A stretch of 32,126 nucleotides of DNA, from the NCBI GenBank assembly GCA_024697025.1, contig JAILGH010000058.1:1-32126 (forward strand), written 5' to 3'. The notes beneath the pieces are model-generated. The model made no database searches, had not been told where the DNA came from, and saw only the letters and a program-made list of their open reading frames with translations. Source of the DNA: Pseudobutyrivibrio sp. (GTDB lineage: Bacteria; Bacillota; Clostridia; Lachnospirales; Lachnospiraceae). Shown here piece after piece: positions 1 through 28,208 of this stretch. A program made the position numbers and the translations under genes. Position 1 is the first letter of the stretch; each line of letters begins with the position of its first letter.

Positions 1-1698
1 AAATATAAAGGCAGAATCTACGGCGCGTTTGTCATGTCCTTTCTTAAGGGTATGTTTATGAAGGTTCCTATTATACTAATGTATTTCATTCTTGAAGCAT
101 ATCTAGAGGGTTCCATCACAAAAGAAATCTGCATTCGAACTGCAATTATTTTGGTAGTGGGCGTAATAGCTCAGGCAGTCGCTCAGTATCTAGCTGATAG
201 AATGCAAAGTGCAGCCGGTTACCAGATTTTTGCTGACATGAGAATGAAACTCGGCGAGCATTTGCGCAAGCTTCCTATGGGTTACTTTACAGAGGGTAAC
301 ATAGGAAAGATTAGCTCTGTATTATCTACAGACATGGTCTTCATAGAAGAAAACTGTATGATGGTCATTGCGGACATGATGAGTTACTTGTTTGCACAGT
401 TTATCATGGTTGTTTTTATGTTCATTTTTGACTGGCGCTTAGGTATTACTTCTGCTATCCTCTCTTCATTTATGATTATGCTTGGACAAGGAATGATGAA
501 AAACGATCTTGTTCATTCAGACGAAAAGCAGGAAGCCTCAGAAGTACAAACTGAAGCGGTTCTCAACTTTACAGAAGGCATTGGTATTATCAAAACTTAT
601 AACCTTCTTGGAGATAAGTCAAAAGAACTTACTGAAAGTTTTGAAGAAAACTGTCGTGTAAATCTTGATTTTGAGGATTCCCACTCACCATGGAAGCGCG
701 GGGTATTTATCCTTTATGGTCTTAGTACCGTAACAATCCTTGGCATTTCTGCAATACTCTATTTCAATGGACTTATGGAGCTTAAGTTCTTCTTCGGAAT
801 GCTTCTTTGTCTCTTTGATTTATTTGTGCCAATCAGAACCTTCTACGATCAAGAATCTAGACTTACGGTGATGAACGCTTGTATGGATAGAATTGAAGCT
901 TTATTTGCTGAAAAAGAATTGGATGATAATGGCTCTGAAAAGCTTACTGACGAATCTGCTGTAGAAATTGAATACGACAATGTTACTTTCGCTTATGATT
1001 CTAAGGATGTTTTAAAGGATGTATCATTCAAAGCTAATAAGGGCGACATGATTGCACTTGTGGGTCCTTCCGGCGGCGGAAAATCTACTATAGCAAGTTT
1101 GCTCACTAGATTCTGGGATGTTAAGTCTGGAAGCATTCTCTTACGTGGAAAAGACATTAGAAATATTCCTCTTGCTACATTGATGGATAATATCAGTATG
1201 GTATTCCAAAGAGTATATCTTTTCCAGGATACCGTTTACAATAACATTGCCCTTGGAAGACCTGACGCTACTAAAGAAGAAATAATTGAAGCTGCAAAGA
1301 AAGCTCGTTGTTATGATTTCATTATGGAGCTTCCTGATGGCTTTGATACTGTTATCGGCGAAGGCGGTGCATCTCTTTCTGGCGGTCAGGCACAGAGACT
1401 TTCTATAGCAAGATGTATCCTCAAGGACTCTCCTATCGTAATCCTTGATGAGGCAACCGCAAGCGTGGATGCGGACAATGAAAGCTACATCCAGTCAGCT
1501 ATATCTGAGCTTTGCAAAGGCAAGACCTTACTTGTTATCGCACATAGACTTAATACTATAATGGGTGCTGACAAGATTATGGTTATAAAGGATGGCATGA
1601 TTGCCGAAACTGGAAACCATTCATCTCTTATGGAAAAACAGGGTATCTACCACAGCATGGTCACTAAGCGTGCCGTTGCTACTGGATGGAAAAATTAA
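1..1698 (+). CDS. ABC transporter, fused permease/ATPase, YbtP/YbtQ-like (5' partial)
   Basis: The gene is open from base 1 with no stop before the first ATG at 34, so its true start lies upstream of the window. The N-terminal half has several hydrophobic membrane segments (type IV ABC exporter fold). The C-terminal half is a full nucleotide-binding domain: Walker A GPSGGGKST near 1063-1089, signature LSGGQ near 1375-1390, Walker B VILDEATA near 1438-1460, and the H-loop in IAHRL. In yersiniabactin and equibactin loci such half-transporters occur as pairs (YbtP/YbtQ, EqbK/EqbL) and move the metallophore or its metal complex. A partner would be expected just upstream, outside the window. It is convergent with the metallophore operon and shares its terminator. 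The transport link is inferred from neighbourhood; the ABC exporter-fold call itself is secure. Confidence 0.88.
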   Translation, partial: KYKGRIYGAFVMSFLKGMFMKVPIILMYFILEAYLEGSITKEICIRTAIILVVGVIAQAVAQYLADRMQSAAGYQIFADMRMKLGEHLRKLPMGYFTEGNIGKISSVLSTDMVFIEENCMMVIADMMSYLFAQFIMVVFMFIFDWRLGITSAILSSFMIMLGQGMMKNDLVHSDEKQEASEVQTEAVLNFTEGIGIIKTYNLLGDKSKELTESFEENCRVNLDFEDSHSPWKRGVFILYGLSTVTILGISAILYFNGLMELKFFFGMLLCLFDLFVPIRTFYDQESRLTVMNACMDRIEALFAEKELDDNGSEKLTDESAVEIEYDNVTFAYDSKDVLKDVSFKANKGDMIALVGPSGGGKSTIASLLTRFWDVKSGSILLRGKDIRNIPLATLMDNISMVFQRVYLFQDTVYNNIALGRPDATKEEIIEAAKKARCYDFIMELPDGFDTVIGEGGASLSGGQAQRLSIARCILKDSPIVILDEATASVDADNESYIQSAISELCKGKTLLVIAHRLNTIMGADKIMVIKDGMIAETGNHSSLMEKQGIYHSMVTKRAVATGWKN

Positions 1699-1724
1699 AC
1701 TAAATCAATTATTTATAAGCATTC

Positions 1725-1758
1725 AAAAAGACAGTCGCAAAACCGCGGCTGTCTTTTT
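1725..1758. terminator. Bidirectional rho-independent terminator between convergent operons
   Basis: A 14-base arm at 1725-1738 (AAAAAGACAGTCGC) pairs with 1745-1758 (GCGGCTGTCTTTTT) with one G-T wobble and a 6-base loop. A-tracts and T-tracts flank both sides, so the hairpin can stop transcription from the ABC transporter gene on the + strand and from the long NRPS operon on the - strand. It sits 27 bases past one stop codon and 17 bases past the other. Confidence 0.9.
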
Positions 1759-1774
1759 CTTTATGCTATATGGC

Positions 1775-3058
1775 TTAAATATACGCAAGAGCCTGATCGA
1801 TATCTTCAATTATATCATTAACATTTTCAATTCCTACGCATATACGAATCAAATCTGGTGTAACTCCTGAAGCAACCAACTCCTCGTCATTGAGCTGTCT
1901 ATGAGTGGACGATGCAGGATGAAGAATTATGGAGTGTGCATCTGCTGCATGAGTACATATCATAGATACATTCAAATGCCTCATAAATTCCTCTGCTCCT
2001 TTTCTTCCACCTTTGACACCAAAGGAAATTACTCCGCATGTGCCATCTGGCATATATTTCTTAACAAGTTTACTGTACTTGTTGTCCTCAAGTCCTGGAT
2101 AGTTTACCCAGCTTATCTTATCGTGGTCCTTCATGAAGTTGGCCACCTTCATAGCGTTGCTACAGTGTCTTTCGATACGAACTGCAAGAGACTCAAGACC
2201 CAAGTTCAAGATGTAAGCATTCATAGGACTCTGCACGGCGCCCAAGTCTCTCATAATCTGAGCTGTCATCTTTGAAATATAGGCACCCTCCTGTCCAAAA
2301 TGCTTGGTATAAACAACACCATGGTATGAAGGGTCAGGTGTTGTAAGGGAAGGGTACTTATCAGCATGCTTTTCCCAATTAAAGTTTCCTGAGTCGATTA
2401 CACATCCTCCGATTGTTGAATCATGACCATCCATATATTTAGAAGTTGAATGTACTACTATATCTGCCCCCCATTCAAATGGTCGGCAATTTAAAGGTGT
2501 AGGGAATGAATTGTCCACAATAAGTGGCACCCCATGCTTGTGGGCCGCTTTTGCAAATTTTTCGATGTCCAATACTACTAATGCTGGGTTAGATACCGAC
2601 TCTCCAAAAACAGCCTTAGTATTTGGACGGAAGGCTGCGTCTAATTCTTCCTCAGAGCAATCAGGGTCTAAGAATGTAAACTCAACTCCCATTCGTCCCA
2701 TGGTCATGTGGAACAGATTGTAAGTTCCACCATAAATCATGCTAGAAACTATGACATGGTCACCGCAACCGCATATGTTAAATATTGAAAAGAAGGTTGC
2801 TGTCTGACCTGAACTTGTTAAAATCGCAGCACTTCCACCCTCAAGGGCACATATCTTTGCTGCAACATTATCGCAAGTTGGATTCTGAATACGTGAATAA
2901 AAATATCCAGATTTCTCCATGTCAAATAGTTTTCCCATCTCTTCACTTGAATCATACTTAAAGGTTGAGCCCTGTATAATTGGAACTATACGAGGCTCCC
3001 CATTCTTTGGCTCATATCCAGCCTGAACACATAAAGTCTCTTTTCTAAGCTTTTTCAT
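1775..3058 (-). CDS. O-acetylhomoserine sulfhydrylase-like PLP enzyme (Cys/Met metabolism family)
   Basis: A 427-residue PLP enzyme of the cystathionine gamma-synthase / O-acetylhomoserine aminocarboxypropyltransferase family, at normal length. Visible motifs are YSRIQNPT (about 54-61), SSGQTA (about 82-87) and the Schiff-base lysine in STSKYMDGH (Lys about 207). The family makes homocysteine (or cysteine) from an acetylated or succinylated amino acid and sulfide, or runs related gamma-replacement or elimination reactions. I chose the start at 3058, not the longer 3100 frame, because AAAGGAG (3065-3071) lies six bases before this ATG. The ATG overlaps the last codons of the VOC gene by 14 bases, so it belongs to the metallophore operon. 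It may supply sulfur amino acid or sulfide for cysteine-derived heterocycles; a purely housekeeping role is possible. Confidence 0.87.
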   Translation of the reverse strand: MKKLRKETLCVQAGYEPKNGEPRIVPIIQGSTFKYDSSEEMGKLFDMEKSGYFYSRIQNPTCDNVAAKICALEGGSAAILTSSGQTATFFSIFNICGCGDHVIVSSMIYGGTYNLFHMTMGRMGVEFTFLDPDCSEEELDAAFRPNTKAVFGESVSNPALVVLDIEKFAKAAHKHGVPLIVDNSFPTPLNCRPFEWGADIVVHSTSKYMDGHDSTIGGCVIDSGNFNWEKHADKYPSLTTPDPSYHGVVYTKHFGQEGAYISKMTAQIMRDLGAVQSPMNAYILNLGLESLAVRIERHCSNAMKVANFMKDHDKISWVNYPGLEDNKYSKLVKKYMPDGTCGVISFGVKGGRKGAEEFMRHLNVSMICTHAADAHSIILHPASSTHRQLNDEELVASGVTPDLIRICVGIENVNDIIEDIDQALAYI

Positions 3059-3806
3059 CTTCTTCTCCTTTAATATCATCCTCATTAACAAAGCCCACAT
3101 TCATTCCAAGTAATCCCTGCAATGGTGGTGGAGTAAAGTCATCTTTTTTAGTAAGGAATATAACTTTGCTAATAGCAGTTTTGCTGCCCCTTATTAGCTT
3201 AACCTTCTTATCACCGCCTACTAACCTTTCCATGGCCGGATAATCTCTATCAGAACAGGTAACTTCCATTCTATAAATACTATCTATTCCATTCTTATGC
3301 TCAATATGCTCAGGTATCTGAGGTATTGAATATGCAGTAACTAAAAATGGTAACTCCACTGGATTCAAAGGGCAAAAGCCAAATCCTACTTTTTCATCTC
3401 TCACATTTCGTCTAGATGAAATCATATTTTCTGAAAGCTCAAACCCTTCCTTTAACAACTGCTCTCTTACATTTCCCATGTTTTCAATAGCAGCTATTTT
3501 TCTATCACAAGGTTCAAATGCAAAGTCAGAAAATCCCTCTTTAGCATCACTCCAAAATCTAAAACGGTCACCCATAGGTTTTCCAAACTTTTTATCCATA
3601 AAAACATGAGCTATATTTGCAGGTCCCTTCATCATAAAAACTTCGATAAAAGCATGGTCATTAAAGAAAATAAAAGCGTTAGGTGATATTAATCCTTTAT
3701 GACCAAATTCAACAGTAAACCCCGCTTCTCTTAATTTTTTAACGGCAGACCTTGTACCATTTACCTTTAAATGTATATGACTAAGCCTATAATCAATATT
3801 ATTCAT
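3045..3806 (-). CDS. VOC/glyoxalase-like domain protein of unknown role
   Basis: A 253-residue cytosolic protein with repeated beta-alpha-beta-beta-beta character of the vicinal oxygen chelate (glyoxalase) superfamily. The N-terminal module begins with HIHLKV (His10/His12), followed by FFNDHAFIEVF (His51, Glu55), which are plausible metal ligands. A second module occupies about 110-250. VOC proteins range from isomerases and dioxygenases to resistance proteins that sequester small molecules, so sequence alone does not fix the reaction. It lies 13 bases after the FAAL-ACP gene and overlaps the sulfhydrylase gene, so it is co-transcribed with the metallophore genes. Tailoring of the product or its binding for self-protection are both reasonable guesses; neither is shown. 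Confidence 0.7.
   Translation of the reverse strand: MNNIDYRLSHIHLKVNGTRSAVKKLREAGFTVEFGHKGLISPNAFIFFNDHAFIEVFMMKGPANIAHVFMDKKFGKPMGDRFRFWSDAKEGFSDFAFEPCDRKIAAIENMGNVREQLLKEGFELSENMISSRRNVRDEKVGFGFCPLNPVELPFLVTAYSIPQIPEHIEHKNGIDSIYRMEVTCSDRDYPAMERLVGGDKKVKLIRGSKTAISKVIFLTKKDDFTPPPLQGLLGMNVGFVNEDDIKGEEDEKA
3065..3071 (-). promoter_or_regulatory. Ribosome binding site fixing the sulfhydrylase start
   Basis: AAAGGAG on the minus strand lies six bases before ATG at 3058-3056, inside the 3' end of the VOC gene. It supports the 427-residue product over the longer in-frame possibility from 3100 and indicates translational coupling. Confidence 0.75.
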
Positions 3807-3819
3807 GGTTCACACTTCC

Positions 3820-5916
3820 CTATCCTAATTCTTGTTCAAGTAACATTGCCAACTCATCTTCATTTAATGCATCTAAATCATCAGTCTTAATACTTTCACT
3901 AAAGCAGGTGTCAAAAATATGCGTAGCAAGTTTATCTACTGTATTTTGATTAAATACATCTACAACAGAAAGCTTCACTCCAGGAACTGTATTTAGTTGA
4001 GCGACAATATTCACATTCATCTGGGAGTTCATTCCCATCTTCATAAAGGTCATGTCTAAGTCAACTTCGGCTGTTGCAATACCAAGAGAATCTGCCAATA
4101 AATCAACAATGATATTCTTAATATCTTCAACTGTCTCAACTTCAATCTGACTTAAATCCGCATCCTTCATCTGCTCTTCATAAAGTACTCCGCAAAGAGC
4201 ATCCTTTATAAATAATTCCTTGGCGGTCCTTCTTTGTATCTTTCCGCTATCGGTACGAGGAATTGAATTCTCTTCTACCAAGATAATCTTGTGTGGTTGC
4301 AACTGATATGACTTAAAAATGTTGTTTCGCACATCCTTTGCAGCATCTTTCAATGTGTCCAGAGAAAGGGTCTTTCCCTTTATTTCCTGAATTATAATTA
4401 TGCTATCCTCATCCTCAAAGGTAGCCGAAAAAGCACAAGCAGCATAATTAAATGACTTATTACTCTTAACAGAAACAGTTTCCAAATCTGTTGGATAGTA
4501 GTTAACTCCGTGGATAACAATACTCTCCTTGTATCTGCCTGTTATATAAAGTTCACCATCATCACCTATAAAACCTGCATCTCCAGTATGCAAAATAACT
4601 TGTCCATCTTTGCCCTTAACAAAGGTCTTTGCCGTTTCTTTAGGTCGCTTCCAATAACCGGCAGCTACAGATGGACCACTTATACATATTTCTCCAATGG
4701 ACATTTTAGGAAGTTGCTCACCATCAGAAGAAAGAACCATAAGCTGGTTGTCATCTATTGGCTTTCCATTTCCCACTAGATAAGTTCCTATTTCATCGTT
4801 TTCAATGACCTTAACATTACCTGTAAACTGTCCCCTTTCGAGCACTACAATTTTATTTTCAGAAAGAGCTTTTTTATCAACTCTAAGCCAACCACCAGGT
4901 ATATCGCTTGTGTTCATTGAAAGCATCAAGGTAGCCTCCGCAAGACCATATCCCGCACGAACAGCCTCCTTTTTCATTCCAAACTTGTGGCACACTTCCA
5001 TCAACTCTACTTGAGTGTTAAATCGTACAGATTCAGAACCACTTACAATTCGCTCAATGCTGGCTAAAGAAATATTATCCGGATTTCCATTTTCATATTT
5101 CTCTTTTAATAATTTACAAAGTAATTCATAGCCAAAATTAGGGGCAACTACGTGTGTGGCCTCGTAATCATTCATGGCATATATCCATTTCTCTGGATTG
5201 CTTTTAAACAATTCTGGCTTCATGAATACATTTCGCCCACCGGTATATACTGCTGTGTATAGGCCAAAAATCAATCCCATATCATGGTGATAAGGCAACC
5301 ATCCTACAATCGAAGAGTCGCTAGTCAAATAAAATCTATCTGCTATCTGCTTAAGATTATCAAGCAATGAGCTCTGATTAATCATTACACCCTTTGGCTC
5401 TCCAGTTGAGCCAGATGTATATTGAAGAATGGCTAAGCAATCCTCAAACTCACAACAGTATGGCTTAGCATTTTCAGTCATTGCATAATGAAATACTGGT
5501 ATTCCACCAAAATACTTAGCTGAACTGTCTTCCATCATAGAAGCTGCGCTGTCATTTGTAAGAATTCCAGATGCTCCACAACTTTCATAAACATTTACAT
5601 AACGTTCCATATCTGTGTTCTCATCAAAAATATCTAATGGTACCGCTACAGCTCCTGCCATCAAGCAACCATACAGCCCGTACAAAAGCTCCATATCCTG
5701 CTTGTACATAATCAGGCATCTATCGCCCTTTTTAATTCCAGATTCCTTCAAAACACCTGCCACCTTAGCACTGTTATCATATAAAGTTTTAAAATCACAG
5801 TACTTAGCATCTCCTTCTTCAGGTACATAAATATAAGCGGTTTTATCTGGTGTATTTTTCCCTCGAAGGTATAGAATCTGAATTAAATTTTTAATTTCAC
5901 AATCATACAGAATCAT
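3820..5916 (-). CDS. Fatty-acyl-AMP ligase (FAAL)-acyl carrier protein didomain starter protein
   Basis: Residues 1-570 form an adenylate-forming ligase of FAAL type: P-loop YTSGSTGEPKG (about 165-176), the FAAL-typical GWLPYHHDMGLIFG (205-218), GYGLAEATL (322-330), HTGD (442-445), and the A10 lysine in RTDSGK (about 559). Residues 590-670 are an ACP with the phosphopantetheine serine in MGMNSQ (Ser631). The acidic C-terminal tail may be a docking element. FAALs activate fatty or other carboxylic acids as adenylates and load them directly on an ACP, here apparently in cis. No salicylate or dihydroxybenzoate genes are present, so this is the best candidate for loading the starter unit. The substrate cannot be read from the sequence. 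An AAAGGAG site precedes the ATG. Confidence 0.88.
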   Translation of the reverse strand: MILYDCEIKNLIQILYLRGKNTPDKTAYIYVPEEGDAKYCDFKTLYDNSAKVAGVLKESGIKKGDRCLIMYKQDMELLYGLYGCLMAGAVAVPLDIFDENTDMERYVNVYESCGASGILTNDSAASMMEDSSAKYFGGIPVFHYAMTENAKPYCCEFEDCLAILQYTSGSTGEPKGVMINQSSLLDNLKQIADRFYLTSDSSIVGWLPYHHDMGLIFGLYTAVYTGGRNVFMKPELFKSNPEKWIYAMNDYEATHVVAPNFGYELLCKLLKEKYENGNPDNISLASIERIVSGSESVRFNTQVELMEVCHKFGMKKEAVRAGYGLAEATLMLSMNTSDIPGGWLRVDKKALSENKIVVLERGQFTGNVKVIENDEIGTYLVGNGKPIDDNQLMVLSSDGEQLPKMSIGEICISGPSVAAGYWKRPKETAKTFVKGKDGQVILHTGDAGFIGDDGELYITGRYKESIVIHGVNYYPTDLETVSVKSNKSFNYAACAFSATFEDEDSIIIIQEIKGKTLSLDTLKDAAKDVRNNIFKSYQLQPHKIILVEENSIPRTDSGKIQRRTAKELFIKDALCGVLYEEQMKDADLSQIEVETVEDIKNIIVDLLADSLGIATAEVDLDMTFMKMGMNSQMNVNIVAQLNTVPGVKLSVVDVFNQNTVDKLATHIFDTCFSESIKTDDLDALNEDELAMLLEQELG

Positions 5917-5931: not shown

Positions 5932-8751
5932 CTAAATTTCTCCAAACTCCATATCCTCATCATCTGAGCATGCTAATTTCTCATCTATAAGTGCAGCTAT
6001 GGAACCAAGCGTTGGTGTGCCATACATTTCCTTCAATGTAAATTCAACATTAAACTCCTGACGCACCTTTGTAAGTAAATGCGTAGCAAGAAGGCTATCA
6101 CCACCTGCTCTAAAGAAGCTCTGCTCTACTCCGACCTCATCCACATGGAGAATTTCCTGCCACATGACTGCCAACTTCTTTTCAGTGTCAGTAGAAGGTG
6201 GAGTAAGTTCAGAAAGCTCATCCGTATTTACCATATCGACTAATGCTTTATGATCTGGCTTTCCATTCTTAGTAAGAGGAATTCTGCTGGCAAAAACTAT
6301 TTTTTCCGGAACCATATATTCTGGAAGTCTTTGCCCCAAGTAATACTTAATGGCATTTGCGGTAAGGCTTTCATCTGAACTAATCTTTTCAGCTTCTAAA
6401 ATAATGAACACTGATTCCTCATAATGGTGCCAACTAATATTGCAAAATCCCTGTCGTAAATAATATCCTGCAGCAAGTTCCACCGGCATAACTGGATTAT
6501 TCGCCTCAGGTCGATTATCCTTTGTAAAATTGATAAATCCCTTTTCCAACTGAGCGGCAGAAAGGAATGATAATGGTGGTAATTCATTAAGGTCAACTAT
6601 ATATGCCTTACCATGATTCTTTAGTAATTCTCTTACAATAAATACCCCCTGTTCATAGTCGGGATAAGTATGCATATCATTTATGTCCACTACAACATCA
6701 AAAGCATTTCTTAAATCATCCGGAACAATATCCCTAATAATGTAATAACTATGGTTATCACCAAGTCTTTGCTTTGCTTGAGAAGTAAAGAAAGCAGTTT
6801 GATCAATAAATGTATAATCGATATCAGAATCCTCAGTGAGTTCAACTAATCTTTCAACTACTAGTCCAGTTCTGGCTCCAAGAACAGCAACGTGCAGATT
6901 CATTTCATCTTCTTCATAAAGGTCATTAATACGCTCTGCTATTTCTTTGACACCAGCGATTATTCCATTTTCTTGGGTAGAAATTGTTTCAGGAGACAGC
7001 CAATCATCTTCCATCATATCTGCAGCTGTTTTTTCGCCCTTCATAACATCTGATAATAGTTTGATACTATCCTTTATCTCCTCTAAAACTGGCTCCGCTT
7101 TTTTGTTAGTCAAATTGATTTGTCCACCAGAAATAGTGATATATCCATATTTTTCAAGGACAGATAACCAATAATCATAAACACTTCTATTTGCAGCATC
7201 AAAACCTAATTTGTTAAACAAATCCTCTACGCTCGCTGGTAAATCTTGTGAATCATTAAGACCAAGTATCCCCATCAATGCGGCTGTTGCCATAACTGCC
7301 TGCTTCCCACAAAGCTCAGATGTATCTGTCTTTTCACCAATTTGTCTTGGGGTTTCATCACACTGGTCGGTTTGCTCAGTCACAACTGAAGCTAACATTT
7401 GCTTTTCATTTTTTTGAATCATAACAGTTCCAGCACCGCTAATTCTTTCGTGAGCTATTAGAGTCTTGGTAATTTCGTCTAGCTCAACGCGATAACCGCC
7501 AAATTTTACCTGATTATCAAGGCGGCCTAGAAACTCAATATTGCCGTCCTCCAAATATCTTCCCTTGTCACCTGTTTTATACCAACGACAGCCTTGGTCT
7601 TCAATAAATCGCTCAGCTGTAAGCTCAGGAGAATTAACATATCCTTTGGCAAGGCCTACGCCACCAATCTGTAATTCACCTTCTTCATCAGCTCCTTCAA
7701 TTACTCCATTTTCAGAAACAATTCTGTACTTTTGATTGGTCAAAGCTTTTCCATAAGGCACTGATTTGAAGCTGCTATCAATTTCCTGACCAACCTCATA
7801 GCAGTTAGACCAGATAGATGCCTCTGTGGCACCGCCCAATGCTATGATTCTGGCAGTTTTATTCTTCTCACGAATTCGTGTAATTAATGATGGGTAAACC
7901 CAATCTCCAGAAAGGAGAATCAGTCTTAAATTAGCTACAACCTCGTTGTTGTAATCCGCTGACAAAAGCATATCGAATAACATTGGCACAGAGTTCCAAA
8001 CAGTAGGCTGCTCTTTTTTCATAAGCTCTTTCCACTGTTCAGCTTCCTTTTTCATATTCTTGTCGCAGATAACAATCTTGCCACCAACTGAAAGAATTCC
8101 AAAAATATCATAAACAGAAAGATCAAAATCAATTTCTGAAACTGCAAATGCACAATCCGCCTCAGAAACATCAAATCTTTCATTAATGTCTTTAATAGTA
8201 TTACTTGCAGCAAAATGCTGTATCTCAACTCCCTTAGGCTGGCCAGTAGTTCCTGAAGTGAAAATAATATAGGCATCGTTCTCTGGATTTACTTCTATAG
8301 GCTTAGCCTTTGCCGCCTCTAATACTGCTTCAGGAGTAAGAACCTTTAATCCCATTTCCTCAAAAAATGCCTTGCTTTCAGAATCTGTGATGACTGTTGT
8401 AACCTCGGCCTTTTCGCAAATATATTTTCTACGCTCCGCAGGCACAGTTGCACTTATTGGTAGATAAGCACAGCCTGCCCCTAAGATACCCATTATTGCA
8501 CTAATAAATTCCGCTCCTTTATCAAGAGCTGCTGCAACAATTCCATTTGCATTTATTTCTGTTAAAGCACCGCAATAATGCATTGCCTTTTCGGCTATAT
8601 CGCCATATGTAAAAGAGTTCACGCCACCATTTTCTTCTCTCTGAGCTACAGCAATGCGTTCAGGATGCTGTGATGCCATATTAAAAAATCCTTCATGAAT
8701 TAAACTTGGAGAAATAGTTACTCCCTGGTTTTCTATTACTTTGTTAGACAT
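5932..8751 (-). CDS. NRPS A-(embedded methyltransferase-like)-PCP protein, cysteine-type, no condensation domain
   Basis: A 939-residue NRPS protein that starts directly with an adenylation domain. Motifs are TSGTTGQPKG (165-174), FDLSVYDIFG (209-218), VWNSVP (251-256), GGATEASIWS (306-315), YKTGD (391-395) and the A10 lysine in NGKPDH (Lys831). The DLY..N..IW positions resemble those of cysteine-activating domains of pyochelin and yersiniabactin synthetases. A roughly 340-residue insertion (445-790) sits between A8 and A10, as do the MT/epimerase domains of PchE and PchF. Its glycine-rich loop is degenerate (VLGARTGL). A PCP with GGDSLL (Ser886) follows. There is no C or Cy domain, so it must work with a Cy on another protein, most simply the orphan C-terminal Cy of the PKS/NRPS. 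GGAGG lies upstream and only two bases separate it from the PP-loop gene. Confidence 0.88.
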   Translation of the reverse strand: MSNKVIENQGVTISPSLIHEGFFNMASQHPERIAVAQREENGGVNSFTYGDIAEKAMHYCGALTEINANGIVAAALDKGAEFISAIMGILGAGCAYLPISATVPAERRKYICEKAEVTTVITDSESKAFFEEMGLKVLTPEAVLEAAKAKPIEVNPENDAYIIFTSGTTGQPKGVEIQHFAASNTIKDINERFDVSEADCAFAVSEIDFDLSVYDIFGILSVGGKIVICDKNMKKEAEQWKELMKKEQPTVWNSVPMLFDMLLSADYNNEVVANLRLILLSGDWVYPSLITRIREKNKTARIIALGGATEASIWSNCYEVGQEIDSSFKSVPYGKALTNQKYRIVSENGVIEGADEEGELQIGGVGLAKGYVNSPELTAERFIEDQGCRWYKTGDKGRYLEDGNIEFLGRLDNQVKFGGYRVELDEITKTLIAHERISGAGTVMIQKNEKQMLASVVTEQTDQCDETPRQIGEKTDTSELCGKQAVMATAALMGILGLNDSQDLPASVEDLFNKLGFDAANRSVYDYWLSVLEKYGYITISGGQINLTNKKAEPVLEEIKDSIKLLSDVMKGEKTAADMMEDDWLSPETISTQENGIIAGVKEIAERINDLYEEDEMNLHVAVLGARTGLVVERLVELTEDSDIDYTFIDQTAFFTSQAKQRLGDNHSYYIIRDIVPDDLRNAFDVVVDINDMHTYPDYEQGVFIVRELLKNHGKAYIVDLNELPPLSFLSAAQLEKGFINFTKDNRPEANNPVMPVELAAGYYLRQGFCNISWHHYEESVFIILEAEKISSDESLTANAIKYYLGQRLPEYMVPEKIVFASRIPLTKNGKPDHKALVDMVNTDELSELTPPSTDTEKKLAVMWQEILHVDEVGVEQSFFRAGGDSLLATHLLTKVRQEFNVEFTLKEMYGTPTLGSIAALIDEKLACSDDEDMEFGEI

Positions 8752-21200: not shown

Positions 21201-23065
21201 GTGACAACAGTTCGTATTTCAGCTCGCTCTATGATACGGCCTATTCGATTGGCACCCTGCTCCGTTGAGATAGGCACATATACAGCCCCTGCTGCTAATA
21301 TTGCCAGCGCTGCTGCAGGCTGATATACAGATTTCTTTGCAGCTATACCGACCGTTTGTCCTGGAGTTACTCCATTTTGAATCAGTTCGTTGTAGATTGC
21401 TCCTGCAATATCCATAAGCTGTGAATAAGTATATTTGTCCTCTCCCGCAACAACTGCAACCTTATCCGGATACTTTTCTGCTGATGCAAGAATATTTTCG
21501 TGAAGAAGATGTTTAGGCAACTCTAAAGTTGTGTCATTGGCCTTATTAAATATCTCTTCCTGATACTTTGGATATGTTTGCTTGGCAGCAAGCTCTGGTT
21601 CAACTCCATTTGCCATTGACTTGAGAAGCTGGCTGAAAAGCTCAAACATGTCATCAATAATACCATCCTTAAACACGCCTCTTCTCACATCCCAGTTAAC
21701 TTGCATTCCAAATTTTCCATCCATAACTTGGCAATCAATAAATACCTGAGGAGTTTGACTTATTCCAATTCCTGAAACCATTCCCTTTACAGATTCATCA
21801 TCCATTGAGGACAATAGTCCCACAGCACTTGTGAATACATATGGCATAGTTGCAGCTGCGCTTCCTTTTTTATTGGCCAGCTCACGCATGAAGGCTACGC
21901 CAGAATATAAATTGTGATCCATATCCTCAAAAAGCTGCATATTGGCACGCTTTACGTTTTCTATGAAGGTCTCATCATTATCTAAATCAATATCAAGTAA
22001 TGTAAGGGTTGTAAAATCACCTATAACCTTACCTATATCCTCGTGAAGAGGCTGCCTGTTTAGCATTGTAAGGTTGATAGCAAATCTCTTGTTATCACTG
22101 TAACAACTTAATGTATGAGCATAAGCCATTAACACAAGAGCTGTCGGTGTAACATTGCATTTATACGCATATTTCTTAACGTTCTCCCAAAGCTCAGGTG
22201 ATAACTGCAAAAACTTTCTATCGAACCTTGCCTCTTTATCTGCAGAGTATGGCTCTGTGTCAATCTGTGGGCAAGTTGGAAAATCCTCTAGCTTGCTAAG
22301 CCAATAATGTTTATCCCTTTCGCAAGCTGCGCTTTCCTTCATCTCTTTTTCTGCTAAAACGTAATCTCTAAAGCTTACCTGTGGTTCAGGAATCTCACTT
22401 GCTTTTCCAAAATACAATTCTTCAAATTGATGCAATAGCATCCAAATACTAGTCCAATCCGCAATGATAAATTCAATTGAAAAATGCATTATGGCACTAT
22501 CATCATAATTGGATACACCAACCGCAAAATATGGCCAGCTTCCCACCTCAAACTGCTGATGTCCCATTTCCTCCATCACCTCTTCGGCAGGAGTATCCTT
22601 ATAATCTTTGACAGTTAAATGAGGTGCTTTTTCAAGTATCTGCTGATAACCTTCTTCATGCATCACTGCTCTAAGCATCTCGTGACGTTCTATAAGATAG
22701 TTCCATATTTCTTCTACTTTATTAACGTCCAATTTTTCGTAGTTAAGTTGAAGGTATATATGGCATGATAATCCGCCATAGTTAAACAGATTACTTCTTC
22801 CCATAAGATAAGACTGCTGTACATCTGTAAGCACAAAAGGCTTATATCTGTCAGCTTTGTTCTCCGAAAGTGTAATTTTTCTATTGTCAGGATCTAGCAA
22901 CTCTAACACTTCACTTTTTAACTCTTTCAAAGCTGCAATATCATCAGGCTGTAACGCTCCGGTGTTGGCTTTAAATTTTATTTTTTCATCCTCTTTCCAG
23001 AGAGACACGCCCTTCTTTTCTAGTTTTTCTATCAAACTTAATGCTTTGCTATAATTTTCTGTCAT
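18266..23065 (-). CDS. NRPS: docking-Cy-A-(MT remnant)-PCP-TE, cysteine-type termination module
   Basis: A 1599-residue NRPS. It has an N-terminal TubC-type docking domain (1-55) and Cy (75-490). The Cy motif reads EFIIADWTS (E198, D203, S206), with Glu replacing the first Asp of DxxxxDxxS. The A domain (515-1175) has TSGSTGEPKG (665-674), FDLSVFDIFG (709-718), GGATEAAIWS (809-818) and Lys1169; the pattern fits cysteine. An insertion of about 200 residues (935-1135) holds LELGADTT and RPGGYF, a shortened methyltransferase-like remnant. PCP is HGADSL (Ser1233). The C-terminal thioesterase (1300-1599) has GYCFGG with Cys1381 in place of serine, Asp1408 and His1579. This is probably the last module, releasing the finished chain. 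The reductase gene ends only four bases before the start. Confidence 0.92.
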   Translation of the reverse strand: MTENYSKALSLIEKLEKKGVSLWKEDEKIKFKANTGALQPDDIAALKELKSEVLELLDPDNRKITLSENKADRYKPFVLTDVQQSYLMGRSNLFNYGGLSCHIYLQLNYEKLDVNKVEEIWNYLIERHEMLRAVMHEEGYQQILEKAPHLTVKDYKDTPAEEVMEEMGHQQFEVGSWPYFAVGVSNYDDSAIMHFSIEFIIADWTSIWMLLHQFEELYFGKASEIPEPQVSFRDYVLAEKEMKESAACERDKHYWLSKLEDFPTCPQIDTEPYSADKEARFDRKFLQLSPELWENVKKYAYKCNVTPTALVLMAYAHTLSCYSDNKRFAINLTMLNRQPLHEDIGKVIGDFTTLTLLDIDLDNDETFIENVKRANMQLFEDMDHNLYSGVAFMRELANKKGSAAATMPYVFTSAVGLLSSMDDESVKGMVSGIGISQTPQVFIDCQVMDGKFGMQVNWDVRRGVFKDGIIDDMFELFSQLLKSMANGVEPELAAKQTYPKYQEEIFNKANDTTLELPKHLLHENILASAEKYPDKVAVVAGEDKYTYSQLMDIAGAIYNELIQNGVTPGQTVGIAAKKSVYQPAAALAILAAGAVYVPISTEQGANRIGRIIERAEIRTVVTLSSDETEYPEGINKIFADGDGQSIKLPKEAAVDSDSLAYIIFTSGSTGEPKGVAISHAAAVNTIEDIIRKYDITDKDSAIGVSQLSFDLSVFDIFGLLSVGGTVVYPEDSRKKEPEYLARIIEKEGVTVWNSVPSLLNMVMVYLDYEDNAPDISSLRLVMLSGDWIPLFLPDKLHAYSKDAKVVSLGGATEAAIWSIYHDYEGPSEGFASIPYGLPLANQQFRILDSRLNDRPVGVKGDIYILGDGLADGYYNDKEKTDLQFIKDPVTGRMMYKTGDIGKYHRNGEIEFLGRSDSQIKFNGHRIELGEIESAVKRSGVTENCSVVYTSNEGEHAMICFYEPAFSDDAQKKEYKNECNELSKDIEVSGAESINGCIHKFVDNYSNLDKPLRILELGADTTVLNVDKDILEQGYEENAFDIVTAQETFKNSIDISYSLKQIRRLVRPGGYFLSTEPLEALNKDKDLANAKGWQELLDETDSSTSAIVLSEANDEADKSGTKLFIKQFKIDRQNITGGEITSLIRDNLASYMIPTTYIMLDSMPVTANGKIDGKALKAFAEKRATAAMAAGDDNSKALSMEMNDLQKELVEILASVGLKGLGLQDSFYDHGADSLILAQATGAIRDKIIKDVPFDTVLRFMLNHPNIQDLSEFVAEKRGDVVEQAEGNTKKVEHIGAAQLYKAGDGPLHVVFHAAFGTMNSLRYVVENLVNQQKGDVLTISLGDADKYYQMDRETAIQQLADDYTQIILETGAEQIQLVGYCFGGWLATQCANRLIEQGKDIADMILIDCQTVPWIIEDRLMIEIMFLPNFGITLEDLGVFEGCEDVNLEKMFVDIIEQFGKIPDGLGDELQQMPEYAKFGQGMNKLGERDMSSRFELYAKLGSEKTGETLDAAMLEGVYKSYCQTIRCCNGDMDSYFGDIRFLNAKDNESMFYSKEKNIGYWTDICIGDIEIIDVDGDHYSCVENPEYAASMCKLITDY

Positions 23066-23069: not shown

Positions 23070-24176
23070 CTAACTCTCTCCTATAAATTTTTCTCGCAAA
23101 TCTACTATGGTTGGGGTAACATCCGATTCTTCGCTCTTTTGTAGCTGAATAAGTTCAGGAAAACCTAGCTCAGCTGTCAGTTGCTGCCAAACCTTGGCTG
23201 AATGCACAGTTTTGGTATAGTAACTTCCTATTTCAGCTGGCGTTCCTTCTTTACATAATCGAAGCATCTGACTAATATCCTCTGCGATAGCAGGTATCCA
23301 CTGGGTTTTGAACACTTCCAAAAAGCTCTGCTCTTTAGATTCGTAAAGCCTAATGTGCTGTGGCACAGACATACTAGTACTATCAGATGAACTGTCGTGC
23401 ATAGTTGTATTGGTGCTATGAACAGGAACAAACATCTTTCCATACCACACAACGCCACCAGTGGTATCCTCAAGACAAAGTCTTCCTTGTTCTGTGATAA
23501 TTGTTATACGATGAAGATAATGCATGAAATTATCGGGATCATCGGGAGCCACTTCATTTTGTATCTGCATTAAAGCAGTTACTCCTCCGATGGATGCCGA
23601 TACTGCATCAAAAGGATGAGAATCTCTACCTACCTGCTTAATTTCAAATGGTCTCATCGACGGTAGAGCCTCAGAAAGAATTCTGACAAGCGGATATGTC
23701 ACTTGCGACGCCCCGCCTATATCTAGATAAATCGGTTTTGATATGTTACATATTGCCTTTGCGCTTTCGATAAAGCACTTGATATTCGGCAAGAACTCGT
23801 ATAAATCGCCTATACGATATAAAACTTTATTTTTCTTTGCTGCCCGTATACATCGTTCAGCATCTTTGTAGTGGACTGGCTGTTCTTGAATTACGTTTAT
23901 TCCCCGCTCCAGCAGCGCCTCTGCCAGTTCAGTTCCATTGCCCCCAAGAACTCCAGACCTAACTGCAACGCAGGCTAGTTGTATGTCATCCTCCAGTTGA
24001 TCGATTGAGGTATAAGATTTCACTCCATAACTAGCAGCGCATTTCTTTGAACGTTCACTTCCTGTAGAAAGAATGCCTACAAATTCAATTTCTCTCGGCA
24101 TTAAAGTTAACGCCTCGCAATAAAATTGCCCAAAGGTCGTTCCACAAACAATAGCTTTTATCTTTTCTGCACTCAT
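23070..24176 (-). CDS. Thiazolinyl imine reductase (Irp3/YbtU/PchG family)
   Basis: A 368-residue Gfo/Idh/MocA-type oxidoreductase. The N-terminal Rossmann strand ends in a glycine turn (CGTTFG, about 11-16). Residues 88-105 carry GINVIQEQPVHYKD, closely resembling the conserved region of the thiazolinyl imine reductases of yersiniabactin and pyochelin pathways. Length fits the family. These enzymes use NADPH to reduce one thiazoline C=N to thiazolidine while the chain is still on the synthetase. Its presence is the clearest single indicator that the operon makes a thiazoline/thiazolidine metallophore. The ATG overlaps the stop of the upstream gene in a TAATG junction, so translation is coupled. 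Confidence 0.9.
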   Translation of the reverse strand: MSAEKIKAIVCGTTFGQFYCEALTLMPREIEFVGILSTGSERSKKCAASYGVKSYTSIDQLEDDIQLACVAVRSGVLGGNGTELAEALLERGINVIQEQPVHYKDAERCIRAAKKNKVLYRIGDLYEFLPNIKCFIESAKAICNISKPIYLDIGGASQVTYPLVRILSEALPSMRPFEIKQVGRDSHPFDAVSASIGGVTALMQIQNEVAPDDPDNFMHYLHRITIITEQGRLCLEDTTGGVVWYGKMFVPVHSTNTTMHDSSSDSTSMSVPQHIRLYESKEQSFLEVFKTQWIPAIAEDISQMLRLCKEGTPAEIGSYYTKTVHSAKVWQQLTAELGFPELIQLQKSEESDVTPTIVDLREKFIGES

Positions 24177-25270
24177 TATATTTCTCCAAATGTTTCTGTG
24201 TTTAAATCATCAAGTTTAAGGTCATATTCTTCGAACATAATCATCTCTGGCGAGCTACGTATTCTTTGAACAATGCCATCGATATACTTCTCATAAAGAA
24301 TCGTTTCAGGTAACTGGGATAAACTGTAAGAACCTTTAACGCTATTTTCTTTTAGAGCAAGCTCACAAACTATTCCTGCCGAGATGCCAGTTAAGGCTGG
24401 TGAAGAAGTAAATTTCACAACTGTAGATTGAACTTTGTTCTCATCGTTCTTGTCCACTCCACTTACCTCAACCAAAAAAGCCATATGCTCTTTCCATCGG
24501 CTGAAGCTAATTTGGCTTTGCAGCATCAACTGTTCAACCGCTTCTTTAGGCTTGTCTGGAAAAATTAAAACTGAATGCTCCACAATCTTTTGTATATCTG
24601 TATCCCCAAAGGCAATGTAATGACAACTCTCTTTACATCCCACAACTCTAGATACCAACTCAGTTTCCAAGTCGTGGTACTGGCGTAAATCATTAACTCC
24701 AACAAAAGGAATATTAACGTCTTTACGTATTTCCGTTGGGGCCTTTTTTTCCAATACATCTTTGCTCACACCTTCTAGATAATCGTATGCTGCACCTCTA
24801 GAAAAGAGACCATACATCGAAGAAATGTGAACATATTCTTTTACTTCCTTAAAGTTTCTAGCAGCATAAGTTCCTATTATCGCTGATAAGCCTGGAAGTG
24901 CTCCCGCTCCATATATGAAGAGAGAATTTGTTGGAAGCTTATATGAATCAGAAGTGAAATTCCCCGTATCAACACATGGAATTCCATTATTTTCACAGGC
25001 TTTTACTATCAGTTCTCTAACATCTTCCGGGCAAAACATTGCATTTAAAATAATGTCTTTGCCCTTTATGAATTCGATTAATAATTCTTTTTGCAACATA
25101 TCTCCAAAAGTCCACTGGACATTAGGTAGATTATCGAAAAAGGAATCATCTTTGACTGTTTGTTCGTTGTGTCCAAAGGCATAAATATTGTATTCCCCTA
25201 TCTTAGAAAGATACTTCAGGGCGTGCCTTCCTACACTTCCTGCCGCTCCTAGTAGTCCTACATTTTTCAT
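24176..25270 (-). CDS. Saccharopine-dehydrogenase-like NAD(P)-dependent oxidoreductase
   Basis: A 364-residue protein starting with a dinucleotide-binding GLLGAAGSVGRHA (about 5-17) and containing GAGALPGL (about 121-128), a pattern typical of the saccharopine dehydrogenase / saccharopine reductase fold. The true family enzymes form or split secondary amines by reductive amination. Here the substrate is unknown: a second imine, a beta-keto group or a free amino-acid-derived intermediate are options. It is the first gene of the 23.5-kb operon, with AGGAGGA (25281-25287) ten bases before the ATG, and overlaps the thiazolinyl imine reductase by one base. That places it in metallophore synthesis, not in lysine metabolism. 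Confidence 0.8.
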   Translation of the reverse strand: MKNVGLLGAAGSVGRHALKYLSKIGEYNIYAFGHNEQTVKDDSFFDNLPNVQWTFGDMLQKELLIEFIKGKDIILNAMFCPEDVRELIVKACENNGIPCVDTGNFTSDSYKLPTNSLFIYGAGALPGLSAIIGTYAARNFKEVKEYVHISSMYGLFSRGAAYDYLEGVSKDVLEKKAPTEIRKDVNIPFVGVNDLRQYHDLETELVSRVVGCKESCHYIAFGDTDIQKIVEHSVLIFPDKPKEAVEQLMLQSQISFSRWKEHMAFLVEVSGVDKNDENKVQSTVVKFTSSPALTGISAGIVCELALKENSVKGSYSLSQLPETILYEKYIDGIVQRIRSSPEMIMFEEYDLKLDDLNTETFGEI

Positions 25271-25294
25271 AGAATCATTGTCCTCCTAACTTAC

Positions 25295-25310
25295 GTTAGT
25301 TTAAACTAAC
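25295..25310. promoter_or_regulatory. Candidate operator of the NRPS operon: perfect 16-bp palindrome
   Basis: GTTAGTTTAAACTAAC is a perfect palindrome built as GTTAG-N6-CTAAC. An additional CTAAC half-site lies at 25286-25290. It sits just upstream of the ribosome binding site of the first NRPS-operon gene. The same GTTAG-N6-CTAAC occurs at the ECF operon promoter (28226-28243). Half-sites recall DtxR/IdeR boxes, but DtxR sites have a shorter centre, so the regulator family is an open question. Confidence 0.68.
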
Positions 25311-25325: not shown

Positions 25326-25348
25326 TCCCTTATTGCTCCCCCGAGCAT

Positions 25349-25390
25349 AAAGATGTGCCTGATTAGACATACTCCATCAGGCACGTCTTT
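25349..25390. terminator. Terminator after the ECF operon
   Basis: The arms at 25349-25363 and 25376-25390 (AAAGATGTGCCTGAT against ATCAGGCACGTCTTT) pair with a single mismatch around a 12-base loop. The hairpin starts directly after the stop of the double ATPase gene. It separates the ECF operon from the NRPS operon, which therefore needs its own promoter. On the minus strand the tail is a short TCTTT, so read-through is possible. Confidence 0.75.
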
Positions 25391-26896: not shown

Positions 26897-26904
26897 TTTT
26901 TCAC

Positions 26905-27624
26905 CTAATAAACTAAAAACAATACGAACATTACCATTGTGCCTGTAATCGCAAATACATCTAATGGCCTAATACTTACCTCGCATATGTGAGTACGTTT
27001 TTCACCGGCACTAAGCCCCTTAGATAAAGATGCTGCAGATAATTCATCCGCTATTCTAACTGTTGACATCATTAGAGGAACCAATATGTACTCGATGTAT
27101 GTCAATGGTTGGCTAAAAGGATGTCCAAGTTCACGCATTCTCTTTGCATCATTTATGGATTTATATTCCTCAGATAGTGTAGGAAAATACCTAAACATAA
27201 CTGACATAGGGATACTTATGAATGAGGGGCAATGCATCCTTTCCATAGCAGTTATAAATTCACTTACAGACGTGGATTTAACCGTATACCACCCCATCAT
27301 ATATCCAGCAACAAATCTTGTTATTAACCCGCATATCATCATGAGAACGATGTTACAGATTCCGTGCGTGTATGGAGCTATATGTTTTTCGCATATTAGT
27401 GCCGAGCCAAGAAGCAACAAATAGATAAACGAAGCCTTATATTCTCTTATTGATAGTAGCAAGACAAGCGGAATCGCCGCGCAAATAAGGCGCAACACTC
27501 CCTCAACTTCCACTGTTCTAGCACCTATCATAATAATAGAAATCGTAATTAGAAGGAGCAGTTTGCTTCGTGGATCTAACTTAATGAAGGCACCATTTTT
27601 ATTGCTGCATACTCCTATCTCCAT
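26905..27624 (-). CDS. ecfT: ECF transporter transmembrane subunit EcfT (CbiQ-like)
   Basis: A 239-residue membrane protein. The start motif KLDPRSKLLLL (about 16-26) is characteristic of EcfT/CbiQ, and several hydrophobic segments follow. The cytoplasmic coupling region includes DAKRMRELGHPF (about 158-169), corresponding to the arginine-containing coupling helices that contact the ATPases. The gene overlaps the S-component gene by one base (TAATG) and precedes the double ATPase. It should form the energy-coupling module with that ATPase and receive substrate from the S component. Confidence 0.9.
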   Translation of the reverse strand: MEIGVCSNKNGAFIKLDPRSKLLLLITISIIMIGARTVEVEGVLRLICAAIPLVLLLSIREYKASFIYLLLLGSALICEKHIAPYTHGICNIVLMMICGLITRFVAGYMMGWYTVKSTSVSEFITAMERMHCPSFISIPMSVMFRYFPTLSEEYKSINDAKRMRELGHPFSQPLTYIEYILVPLMMSTVRIADELSAASLSKGLSAGEKRTHICEVSIRPLDVFAITGTMVMFVLFLVY

Positions 27625-28208
27625 TAGGCCATACCTGCCTTACGAAAATGCTTTTTAAGTACCTTGGCGCCTAAAAGACCACCAACTGTACCGCCAACAA
27701 GGCACATTATTATCATTGCAAAGAATACCCATGTTGGTGTGTAACTCTTCATGGCATCAACATACTCCTGGCCATATCCATCAAGAATGCTTGCAAAATA
27801 AGCATCACGGAAGCTAAAGAAAAACGCGATAACCATTCCAAGGAACCACAAGCTAAAGACAGCCGATGCAGCCACACAATGCTTGATGCTCTGATAGTTT
27901 CCCATCTTTAAAACAACTTCAGTCAATAGTCCTGCACCTATGCAGAAAATAAGAATTGGATAAGGATGTCCGATAATAAACATAAGTATTCCAATTAACG
28001 TACCTGTTATAGTAATCATGCCAAAATGCTTAATCTTAGAAAAATAAAGCATAAGTGGAATAGCCGCTACAAGTGGACAAAGAAGTGGCATAAAAACCAT
28101 AAGGATTGGAATAAATCCTAAGCAAGCCACTGCAAACATAACTATACTGTAAAGAGCAGAAAAAACTCCCACAGTGATAAGGTCTTTGATTTCAAACTTT
28201 TTTTCCAT
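27624..28208 (-). CDS. ECF transporter S component, MptD/Trep_Strep family
   Basis: A 194-residue, very hydrophobic protein with about five to six membrane segments and a basic C-terminus. The opening KFEIKDLITVGVFSALY and the internal GHPYPILIFCIGAGLL resemble the MptD family of putative ECF S components (older name Trep_Strep), whose substrate is not established. It is the first gene of the ECF operon, with an AAGGAAG site about nine bases before the ATG. In equibactin-type loci an ECF-like importer accompanies the NRPS genes, so a metallophore or metal substrate is likely here. Expression is probably controlled by the operator immediately upstream. Confidence 0.83.
   Translation of the reverse strand: MEKKFEIKDLITVGVFSALYSIVMFAVACLGFIPILMVFMPLLCPLVAAIPLMLYFSKIKHFGMITITGTLIGILMFIIGHPYPILIFCIGAGLLTEVVLKMGNYQSIKHCVAASAVFSLWFLGMVIAFFFSFRDAYFASILDGYGQEYVDAMKSYTPTWVFFAMIIMCLVGGTVGGLLGAKVLKKHFRKAGMA

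What the first reader, a model, noticed from the sequence alone, without database searches (positions are those of the whole stretch)
1..28208. Candidate undescribed thiazoline metallophore locus in an anaerobic Firmicute
Seen: three Cy domains, three cysteine-type A domains, a PchG/Irp3-type thiazolinyl imine reductase, a type II TE, a YbtQ-like ABC transporter and an ECF importer in one 28-kb block. Known: these parts define yersiniabactin, pyochelin and equibactin pathways. Inference: the arrangement (acyl starter, one PKS step, then three Cys modules, no aryl acid genes) does not match any of those I know and would give an acyl-polyketide tri-cysteine chelator. Strict anaerobes are rarely credited with such metallophores.
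Basis: partly seen in the sequence, partly recalled or inferred. Interest (0 to 1): 0.88.

Follow-up and report, generated by a model that had tools for sequence, protein, structure and literature searches.

The report
Iron-regulated fatty-acyl thiazoline metallophore cluster
An anaerobic gut- or rumen-type bacterium carries a gene set that probably makes and re-imports an iron-grabbing molecule built from a fatty acid and three cysteines instead of the usual salicylic-acid head, a variant of a known family whose product has not been seen.

Summary
In detail: a minus-strand operon (28208-1775) encodes three Cy domains, three cysteine-type A domains, a YbtU/Irp3-type imine reductase, a type II TE and an ECF importer, with a fused permease-ATPase ABC gene facing it. 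Layout: FAAL-ACP, KS-AT-ACP-Cy-A-PCP-Cy (no KR), A-MT*-PCP, Cy-A-(MT)-PCP-TE. Regulation supports a metallophore: two upstream regions in the operon carry GTTAG-N6-CTAAC, a box found 16 times in the genome (2 for the reversed control) and lying before feoA, a DtxR-type repressor and a ZIP permease. The class is known (equibactin; Clostridium kluyveri, a strict anaerobe, compared with it in 2008). New is the head: in the stretches read, none of 17 other Clostridia loci with this reductase (16 genomes) has the FAAL or a KS-AT joined to the NRPS; Butyrivibrio hungatei XBD2006 and one unnamed Clostridia genome do, with the same KR-less layout. Best reading: a beta-ketoacyl-tris-thiazol(id)ine whose enolizable ketone replaces the phenol. 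Here the terminal MT domain has four in-frame deletions (217 aa) and is probably inactive, so one methyl of the B. hungatei product should be missing; a WbuX-like PP-loop gene is extra. Structure unproven. New variant of a known kind.

The parts
28227..28242 (.). iron box GTTAG-N6-CTAAC, 19 bp before the ECF-S start (GTTAGATTTTGCTAAC on the - strand)
   Evidence: 2 exact sites in window, 0 in 100 shuffles; 16 sites in the genome versus 2 for the reversed control; same place in B. hungatei
27624..28208 (-). ECF transporter S component, Trep_Strep/MptD family
   Evidence: PF09605 198.5 bits, TIGR02185 above cut-off; no PDB sequence match at E 1
26905..27624 (-). ECF transporter T component (CbiQ family)
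   Evidence: PF02361 59.7 bits
25391..26896 (-). ECF transporter ATPase, two ATPase domains fused
   Evidence: two PF00005 stretches
25295..25310 (.). second iron box, 25 bp before the EqbM-like gene
24176..25270 (-). EqbM-like NAD(P)-binding dehydrogenase (saccharopine dehydrogenase fold)
   Evidence: PF03435 26.5 bits versus cut-off 25.1; EqbM was assigned to this Pfam family and needed in the E. coli reconstitution (PMC3672683); not compared with EqbM by sequence
23070..24176 (-). thiazolinyl imine reductase (YbtU/Irp3/PchG type)
   Evidence: TIGR01761 264.5 bits, cut-off 188.8; PF21390; PDB 4gmf YbtU
18266..23065 (-). terminal NRPS, 1599 aa: TubC_N dock - Cy (22825-21590) - A(Cys) - eroded MT (about 20113-19676) - PCP - TE (GYCFGG)
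   Evidence: four in-frame deletions of 438, 30, 129 and 54 bp against B. hungatei; the remnant still gives Methyltransf_11 25.6 bits, cut-off 21.2
10605..18227 (-). PKS-NRPS, 2540 aa: KS (18143-17046) - AT (16616-15798) - ACP - Cy - A(Cys) - PCP - TubC_N dock - Cy; no KR
   Evidence: KS Cys/His/His, AT GHSIGE and malonyl-like PFH motif (motif meaning recalled) present
9833..10594 (-). type II thioesterase
   Evidence: PF00975 134.6 bits; GHSMG
8754..9806 (-). WbuX-like PP-loop protein, TTG start; absent from B. hungatei
   Evidence: TIGR03573 128 bits, below its cut-off 203.2; PDB 8wex and TtuA; none in G145 or G082 at E 0.001; 0 of 396 other family genomes at E 1e-30
5932..8751 (-). A(Cys) - MT-like domain - PCP, 939 aa, without its own Cy
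   Evidence: best PDB match of residues 455-860 is PchE (48 bits), but that match runs into the following A subdomain
3820..5916 (-). fatty acyl-AMP ligase - ACP (starter loading)
   Evidence: PDB matches 3kxw, 7r7e and FadD-type FAALs; carrier Ser present
3045..3806 (-). VOC/glyoxalase-like protein of unknown role
   Evidence: 86%-identical B. hungatei protein passes the Glyoxalase_3 cut-off (30.8 vs 25.1 bits); the window protein itself has no Pfam match
1775..3100 (-). O-acetylhomoserine/O-acetylserine sulfhydrylase, possible cysteine supply
   Evidence: TIGR01326 above cut-off; 97% identical at the same place in B. hungatei
1..1698 (+). 3' part of an ABC permease-ATPase half-transporter; its start and its partner gene lie on contig C8
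   Evidence: 57% identical to an ABC gene in the G402 metallophore locus

Best explanation
An iron-regulated metallophore locus of the equibactin/yersiniabactin-type thiazoline class with a fatty-acyl polyketide head. FAAL-ACP loads a fatty acid; KS-AT-ACP adds one malonyl unit and leaves the beta-ketone (no KR). Cy1 and its A-PCP make the first Cys-thiazoline; the C-terminal Cy2 works with the separate A-MT*-PCP protein for the second; the terminal Cy-A-PCP makes the third; the imine reductase reduces one ring and the TE (Cys in the nucleophile position) releases the acid. The beta-keto-thiazoline can enolize to a six-membered N,O chelate, the donor geometry that 2-hydroxyphenyl-thiazoline gives in pyochelin and yersiniabactin. 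The ABC pair and the ECF importer handle export and/or uptake; a DtxR-type repressor acting on GTTAG-N6-CTAAC shuts the operon when iron is plentiful. Shown by sequence: parts, order, active-site residues, boxes, relatives. Inferred: chain order, single extension, ring number and reduction, chelation, transport roles, identity of the regulator. Predicted product with one reduction: C(n+11)H(2n+13)N3O3S3 for an n-carbon fatty acid; octanoyl starter: [M+H]+ 444.1444.
For: Domains and active sites. FAAL identity. Cys A domains. YbtU-like reductase. Boxes: 2 in window, none in 100 shuffles; 16 versus 2 in the genome, 17 versus 2 in B. hungatei; next to FeoA, an Fe-dependent-repressor-family protein, ZIP and CbiQ. 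B. hungatei has the cluster at 72-97% aa identity per protein in a region with 8 of its 17 boxes. The same KR-less FAAL + KS-AT-ACP-Cy head occurs in G914, 41% identical with no gap over 8 residues. 12 of 17 other reductase loci have a related ECF-S gene in the stretch read. The KS is nearer to the first KS of cyanochelin B (45%) than to an HMWP1-like KS (34%); best PDB matches are 7zma and CurL.
Against: No product is known, even for equibactin, which its authors did not detect by CAS or LC-MS (PMC3672683). Single versus iterative extension cannot be read from sequence; FAAL-KS lines of the micacocidin type make an aromatic head (recalled). Third Cy has Glu in its core; TE has Cys for Ser. 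The regulator of the box is inferred; 2 of 16 sites lie inside ORFs, and some lie by genes with no evident metal role. G914 shows no ECF-S and no reductase match in the 40 kb read. Two of the 17 other loci are near-duplicates (G592, G620) and several are cut by contig ends, so the contrast is somewhat weaker than 17 independent cases. The repressor family also holds manganese sensors; zinc or another metal is not excluded.
Confidence: 0.6

Rival explanations
1. The KS-AT-ACP works iteratively (three rounds), as in micacocidin-type lines, and gives an alkyl-resorcylic or similar aromatic head, so the product keeps a phenol-thiazoline chelator.
For: FAAL-ACP-KS in front of a Cy-A-PCP line is the micacocidin/massiliachelin layout (PMC6604713 passages; Undibacterium locus). 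The KS is 40% identical to the ligase-linked KS of Undibacterium.
Against: Undibacterium has a KR after the AT; the window, B. hungatei and G914 have none and no insert where one would sit. No product-template or DH domain was found. The KS is nearer to the cyanochelin first KS (45%).
Confidence: 0.2
2. The locus makes a zinc, copper or signalling thiazoline compound, or an antibiotic, and iron is not its main target.
For: Yersiniabactin acts as a zincophore in E. coli Nissle (PMC8636617, start of abstract in a listing); bilothiazoles showed no clear metal binding in preliminary tests (PMC11934131 passage); a ZIP gene shares the box.
Against: The box also precedes feoA and a gene of the iron-dependent-repressor family; the related eqb system raises iron accumulation (PMC3672683).
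Confidence: 0.15
3. A decaying, non-functional locus: eroded MT, altered Cy and TE motifs.
For: MT with 217 aa missing; Cy3 core E for D; TE Cys for Ser.
Against: All four deletions keep the frame; the operon ORFs are otherwise uninterrupted from 28208 to 1775; Cy3 Glu and TE Cys are shared with B. hungatei, whose MT is full-length.
Confidence: 0.05

Closest known systems
Equibactin locus eqbA-N of Streptococcus equi (PMC3672683)
   Same: three Cy domains, TE with altered nucleophile (Ala there, Cys here), type II TE, imine reductase, EqbM-type dehydrogenase, paired ABC proteins, separate three-gene importer, DtxR-type control
   Different: salicylate-AMP ligase and ArCP instead of FAAL-ACP and KS-AT-ACP; one A domain instead of three; no PKS; compared by the published description, not by sequence
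Clostridium kluyveri CKL_1504-1523 locus (as cited in PMC3672683)
   Same: strict anaerobe, reductases, EqbM-like gene, ligase plus NRPS, ABC genes
   Different: aryl-type AMP ligase CKL_1504 (55% identical to EqbD in that paper); not compared here by sequence
Micacocidin/massiliachelin-type lines (PMC6604713 passages; Undibacterium sp. KW1 plasmid, assigned by my reading)
   Same: FAAL-type ligase-ACP-KS-AT feeding Cy-A-PCP, imine reductase
   Different: KR present; alkylsalicylate-type head (recalled); second PKS step; TonB receptor
Cyanochelin B (PMC12628792 passages; AP017310.1)
   Same: FAAL-ACP-KS-AT start, a Cys thiazoline next to the acyl part, and a suggested thiazoline-plus-oxygen chelation site
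   Different: reduced and methylated polyketide, beta-OH-Asp chelators, cyanobacterium
Butyrivibrio hungatei XBD2006 locus (NZ_FMUR01000013.1)
   Same: synteny, 72-97% aa identity per protein, boxes
   Different: full-length MT in the terminal module, no WbuX-like gene, extra ECF sets beside it; not seen in the listings of the paper searches made here

Membership tests
Yersiniabactin/pyochelin/equibactin-type thiazoline metallophore | several Cy domains with D-x4-D-x2-S core | tested here: met
   two exact, third E-x4-D-x2-S
Yersiniabactin/pyochelin/equibactin-type thiazoline metallophore | cysteine-activating A domains | tested here: met
   pocket residues of all three (code recalled); best single-domain PDB match PchE for the one searched; not assayed
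Yersiniabactin/pyochelin/equibactin-type thiazoline metallophore | thiazolinyl imine reductase | tested here: met
   TIGR01761 above cut-off; YbtU in PDB
Yersiniabactin/pyochelin/equibactin-type thiazoline metallophore | aryl-acid starter (salicylate or DHB ligase and ArCP) | tested here: not met
   starter enzyme is a FAAL; filed as a variant of the class, not as a member of the aryl-capped families
Yersiniabactin/pyochelin/equibactin-type thiazoline metallophore | iron- or metal-dependent control | tested here: inconclusive
   box shared with feoA and a DtxR-type gene supports it; binding and response not testable here
Micacocidin-type alkylsalicylate siderophore | FAAL plus KS-AT-KR-ACP | tested here: not met
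   no KR in window, B. hungatei or G914
ECF-type importer | S, T and two ATPase domains | tested here: met
ECF-type importer | transports the metal-loaded product | not testable with these tools
   linkage only: ECF-S in 12 of 17 other loci, no background rate computed
N-acetyl sugar amidotransferase (WbuX) | score above the family cut-off | tested here: not met
   128 versus 203.2 bits

The most novel reading that the evidence does not exclude
A subfamily of anaerobic Clostridia metallophores uses a beta-ketoacyl-thiazoline (N,O enolate) head in place of the usual phenolate, catecholate or hydroxamate: a chelating group made by one unreduced PKS step on a fatty acid, which also gives the molecule a membrane-seeking tail. 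In the window lineage the molecule has further lost a methyl group, and a PP-loop enzyme may convert the terminal acid to an amide or thioacid.
Probability: 0.45. Interest if true: 0.78.

Novelty: new variant of a known kind. Interest (0 to 1): 0.6.

Why it matters
The authors of the equibactin study could not detect its product, so a related locus in a cultured isolate (B. hungatei XBD2006), with exact predicted masses, makes an open question testable. A beta-ketoacyl-thiazoline chelator would be a new head group that mining rules resting on known chelator-biosynthesis genes would miss (PMC12971057 passage, says its detection is based on such genes). It would also tie an ECF importer to a metallophore and give gut and rumen anaerobes a route to compete for iron.

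Tried and rejected
Rejected: that the 253-aa protein (3045-3806) is the phosphopantetheinyl transferase; its close homologue passes the Glyoxalase_3 cut-off, and two PF01648 matches lie elsewhere in the genome. Its structure prediction was poor (pLDDT 38.9), so no fold search was run. Rejected: a lone half-transporter; its partner lies on contig C8. Rejected: MT loss as one assembly slip; there are four separate in-frame gaps. One search printed five; the recount shows that the fifth (9 bp) was an end effect of the fragments used. The promoter scan was uninformative (14 found, 14.1 expected). The WbuX-like gene had no relative at E 1e-30 in 396 other family genomes, so its context gave no help. 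The listings of paper searches showed no title or abstract start on a FAAL-type thiazoline metallophore of Lachnospiraceae; the library lacks most subscription papers. Genus search with the EqbM-like protein: 0 of 28 other genomes at E 1e-10. Whether EqbHIJ is an ECF set was not tested.
Full report
Observation. The window is a whole contig (C72, 32,126 bases) of a 2.7-Mb, 110-contig genome, 91% complete, 5% contaminated. The main operon runs on the minus strand from 28208 to 1775. In transcription order it encodes an ECF S component (Trep_Strep/MptD), T component and double ATPase; an EqbM-like dehydrogenase; a YbtU/Irp3-type imine reductase; a 1599-aa NRPS; a 2540-aa PKS-NRPS; a type II TE; a WbuX-like PP-loop protein; a 939-aa A-MT-PCP; a FAAL-ACP; a VOC-like protein; and an OAH/OAS sulfhydrylase. 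All three condensation domains found in the genome are here.

Domain check. Cy cores are DFMIADAMS and DCMLLDGWS in the 2540-aa protein and EFIIADWTS in the 1599-aa protein; the Glu is shared with B. hungatei. The pocket residues of the A domains are DLYNISMIW, DLYNLSLIW and DLFNMSLIW, the cysteine type (positions and code recalled). For the 939-aa protein the best single-domain PDB match is PchE (309 bits); linear gramicidin synthase scores 377 only by summing two domains. KS Cys and two His, AT GHSIGE, a malonyl-like PFH motif, the carrier serines and the type II TE GHSMG are present. The terminal TE has GYCFGG in this genome and in B. hungatei; in EqbG the position is Ala (PMC3672683, passage). 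No KR or DH domain was found after the AT.

Closest relative. A scan of genome contigs with the EqbM-like protein gave one locus, B. hungatei XBD2006. Its cluster is syntenic, 72-97% identical per protein (terminal NRPS 84.7%) and about 80% at DNA level. Differences: no WbuX-like gene, a clean 1-kb difference between the TE and A-MT-PCP genes, and a full-length MT in a 1816-aa terminal NRPS. In the window that MT lacks 438, 30, 129 and 54 bp, each a multiple of three, 217 aa in all (one search's fifth gap of 9 bp was an end effect). Terminal NRPSs of about 1,800 aa in G082, G361, G641, G537 and G914 speak for deletion in the window rather than insertion in B. hungatei. The remnant still passes the Methyltransf_11 cut-off (25.6 vs 21.2 bits), so its inactivity is inferred. 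The MT of B. hungatei resembles CurJ, AprA and DisA methyltransferases. The domain inside the 939-aa protein has its best PDB match in PchE (48 bits), but the match runs into the A subdomain behind it, so calling it an epimerase-type domain, as in PchE (PMC6604713 passage), is tentative. Enolase of the two genomes is 81% identical, below most cluster proteins; this suggests, but does not show, transfer of the cluster.

Distribution. TIGR01761 is above cut-off in 2 of 145 relatives, 8 of 397 family genomes and 9 of 391 class genomes, this genome counted in each. I read the neighbourhoods of all other matches at E 1e-20: 8 and 8 genomes, 17 loci, of which G592 and G620 look near-identical and several are cut by contig ends. 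By protein match, 0 of 17 has the FAAL-ACP, and 16 of 17 have no match to the KS-AT part; the exception, G361, has only a separate FabD-like protein. In 12 of 17 a stand-alone AMP-ligase-like protein of 519-563 aa is present, in G082 and G854 one of 980-987 aa, in G704 one fused to the NRPS, and in G254 and G620 none was seen; that these are aryl ligases is inferred from size and layout. An ECF-S gene lies in 12 of 17, T in 13 of 17; no background rate was computed. A search of 381 genomes of the class of B. hungatei with the FAAL-ACP (E 1e-100, at most 3 candidates scored per genome) found B. hungatei and one more, G914. G914 has FAAL-ACP, KS-AT-ACP-Cy-A-MT-PCP-Cy, a separate A-PCP, Cy-A-MT-PCP-TE and a Sacchrp_dh protein, 41% identical over KS-AT-ACP-Cy with no gap above 8 residues. 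It has no ECF-S and no reductase match in the 40 kb read. So the head is a conserved variant, not a one-off. In the window's own genus 0 of 28 other genomes had the EqbM-like protein.

Regulation. Two upstream regions in the operon carry GTTAG-N6-CTAAC, at 28227-28242 and 25295-25310, and so do the same places in B. hungatei. None occurred in 100 shuffles. The genome has 16 sites against 2 for the reversed pattern; B. hungatei 17 against 2. Of the 16, 14 lie within 350 bp before an ORF of at least 50 aa and 2 inside ORFs. Neighbours are FeoA, an iron-dependent-repressor-family protein, a ZIP transporter, a CbiQ protein, DUF3793, two methyltransferases, an ABC ATPase and an ATC_hydrolase (L-2-amino-thiazoline-4-carboxylate hydrolase, PF14196), an enolase and a gene that reads like pyruvate:ferredoxin oxidoreductase (my reading). 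The half-site resembles the DtxR box (recalled). In B. hungatei 8 of 17 sites lie in C24:69-96 kb around the cluster, with three ECF sets, ABC pairs, ZIP and DUF3793 homologues and a gene that reads like a flavodoxin (my reading).

Mechanism. From the parts I infer: fatty acid to FAAL-ACP; one malonyl extension; three Cys cyclised; one ring reduced; release as acid. The unreduced beta-ketone next to a thiazoline can enolize and bind metal through N and O in a six-membered ring, as the phenol-thiazoline does. The cyanochelin B paper raises a similar thiazoline-plus-oxygen site (passages). Tail length is not predicted. The operon's sulfhydrylase may feed cysteine.

Known versus new. The class is known, including in strict anaerobes: C. 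kluyveri (PMC3672683 passages), an Anaerococcus prevotii plasmid, Bilophila (PMC11934131, abstract and passages; oxygen habits of the last two recalled). Two gut-isolate announcements mention equibactin in their abstracts (search listing only). New here are the KR-less FAAL-KS-AT head in three Clostridia genomes, the MT deletions, the WbuX-like insertion and the box regulon; 'new' rests on the paper searches listed in Tried and rejected.

Limits. No chemistry was seen. Equibactin was not detected chemically by its authors. MIBiG could not be searched. Papers were seen as passages or abstracts, except one whole section of PMC3672683. PMC12918008 passages report NRP-metallophore clusters among cattle epithelial genomes without naming the organism there.

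Noticed in passing
L102 1676-2320 (own genome contig C80): An ATC_hydrolase gene (thiazoline-carboxylate hydrolase family, PF14196) starts 159 bp after an iron box; it could open thiazoline rings to release metal in the cell.
   Followed up: partly
window 8754-9806: WbuX-like PP-loop protein between the type II TE and A-MT-PCP genes, absent from B. hungatei and from 396 other family genomes at E 1e-30; could tailor the terminal acid.
   Followed up: partly
window 19676-20113: Methyltransferase domain eroded by four in-frame deletions while the rest of the NRPS aligns without gaps to B. hungatei.
   Followed up: yes
L119 (own contig C8, 16603 bases): Probable neighbouring contig: second ECF set, two ABC pairs, regulator-like genes (my reading) and three iron boxes; its last 141 bases equal the window's first 141.
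   Followed up: partly
L122/L123 (B. hungatei C24:62000-93000): Box-rich region with two further ECF sets, one with its ATPase in the same 1086-aa ORF as an ABC half-transporter.
   Followed up: partly
window 28366-32119: Two proteins with CBM6 repeats, one also with a CBM2, upstream of the operon; such modules are usual in plant-fibre degraders.
   Followed up: no
L054 (Anaerococcus prevotii pAPRE01): Equibactin-like locus on a plasmid typed as conjugative, with a substrate-binding-protein importer instead of ECF.
   Followed up: no
window 1775-3100: The sulfhydrylase is 97% identical to that of B. hungatei while the other operon proteins are 72-92%.
   Followed up: no
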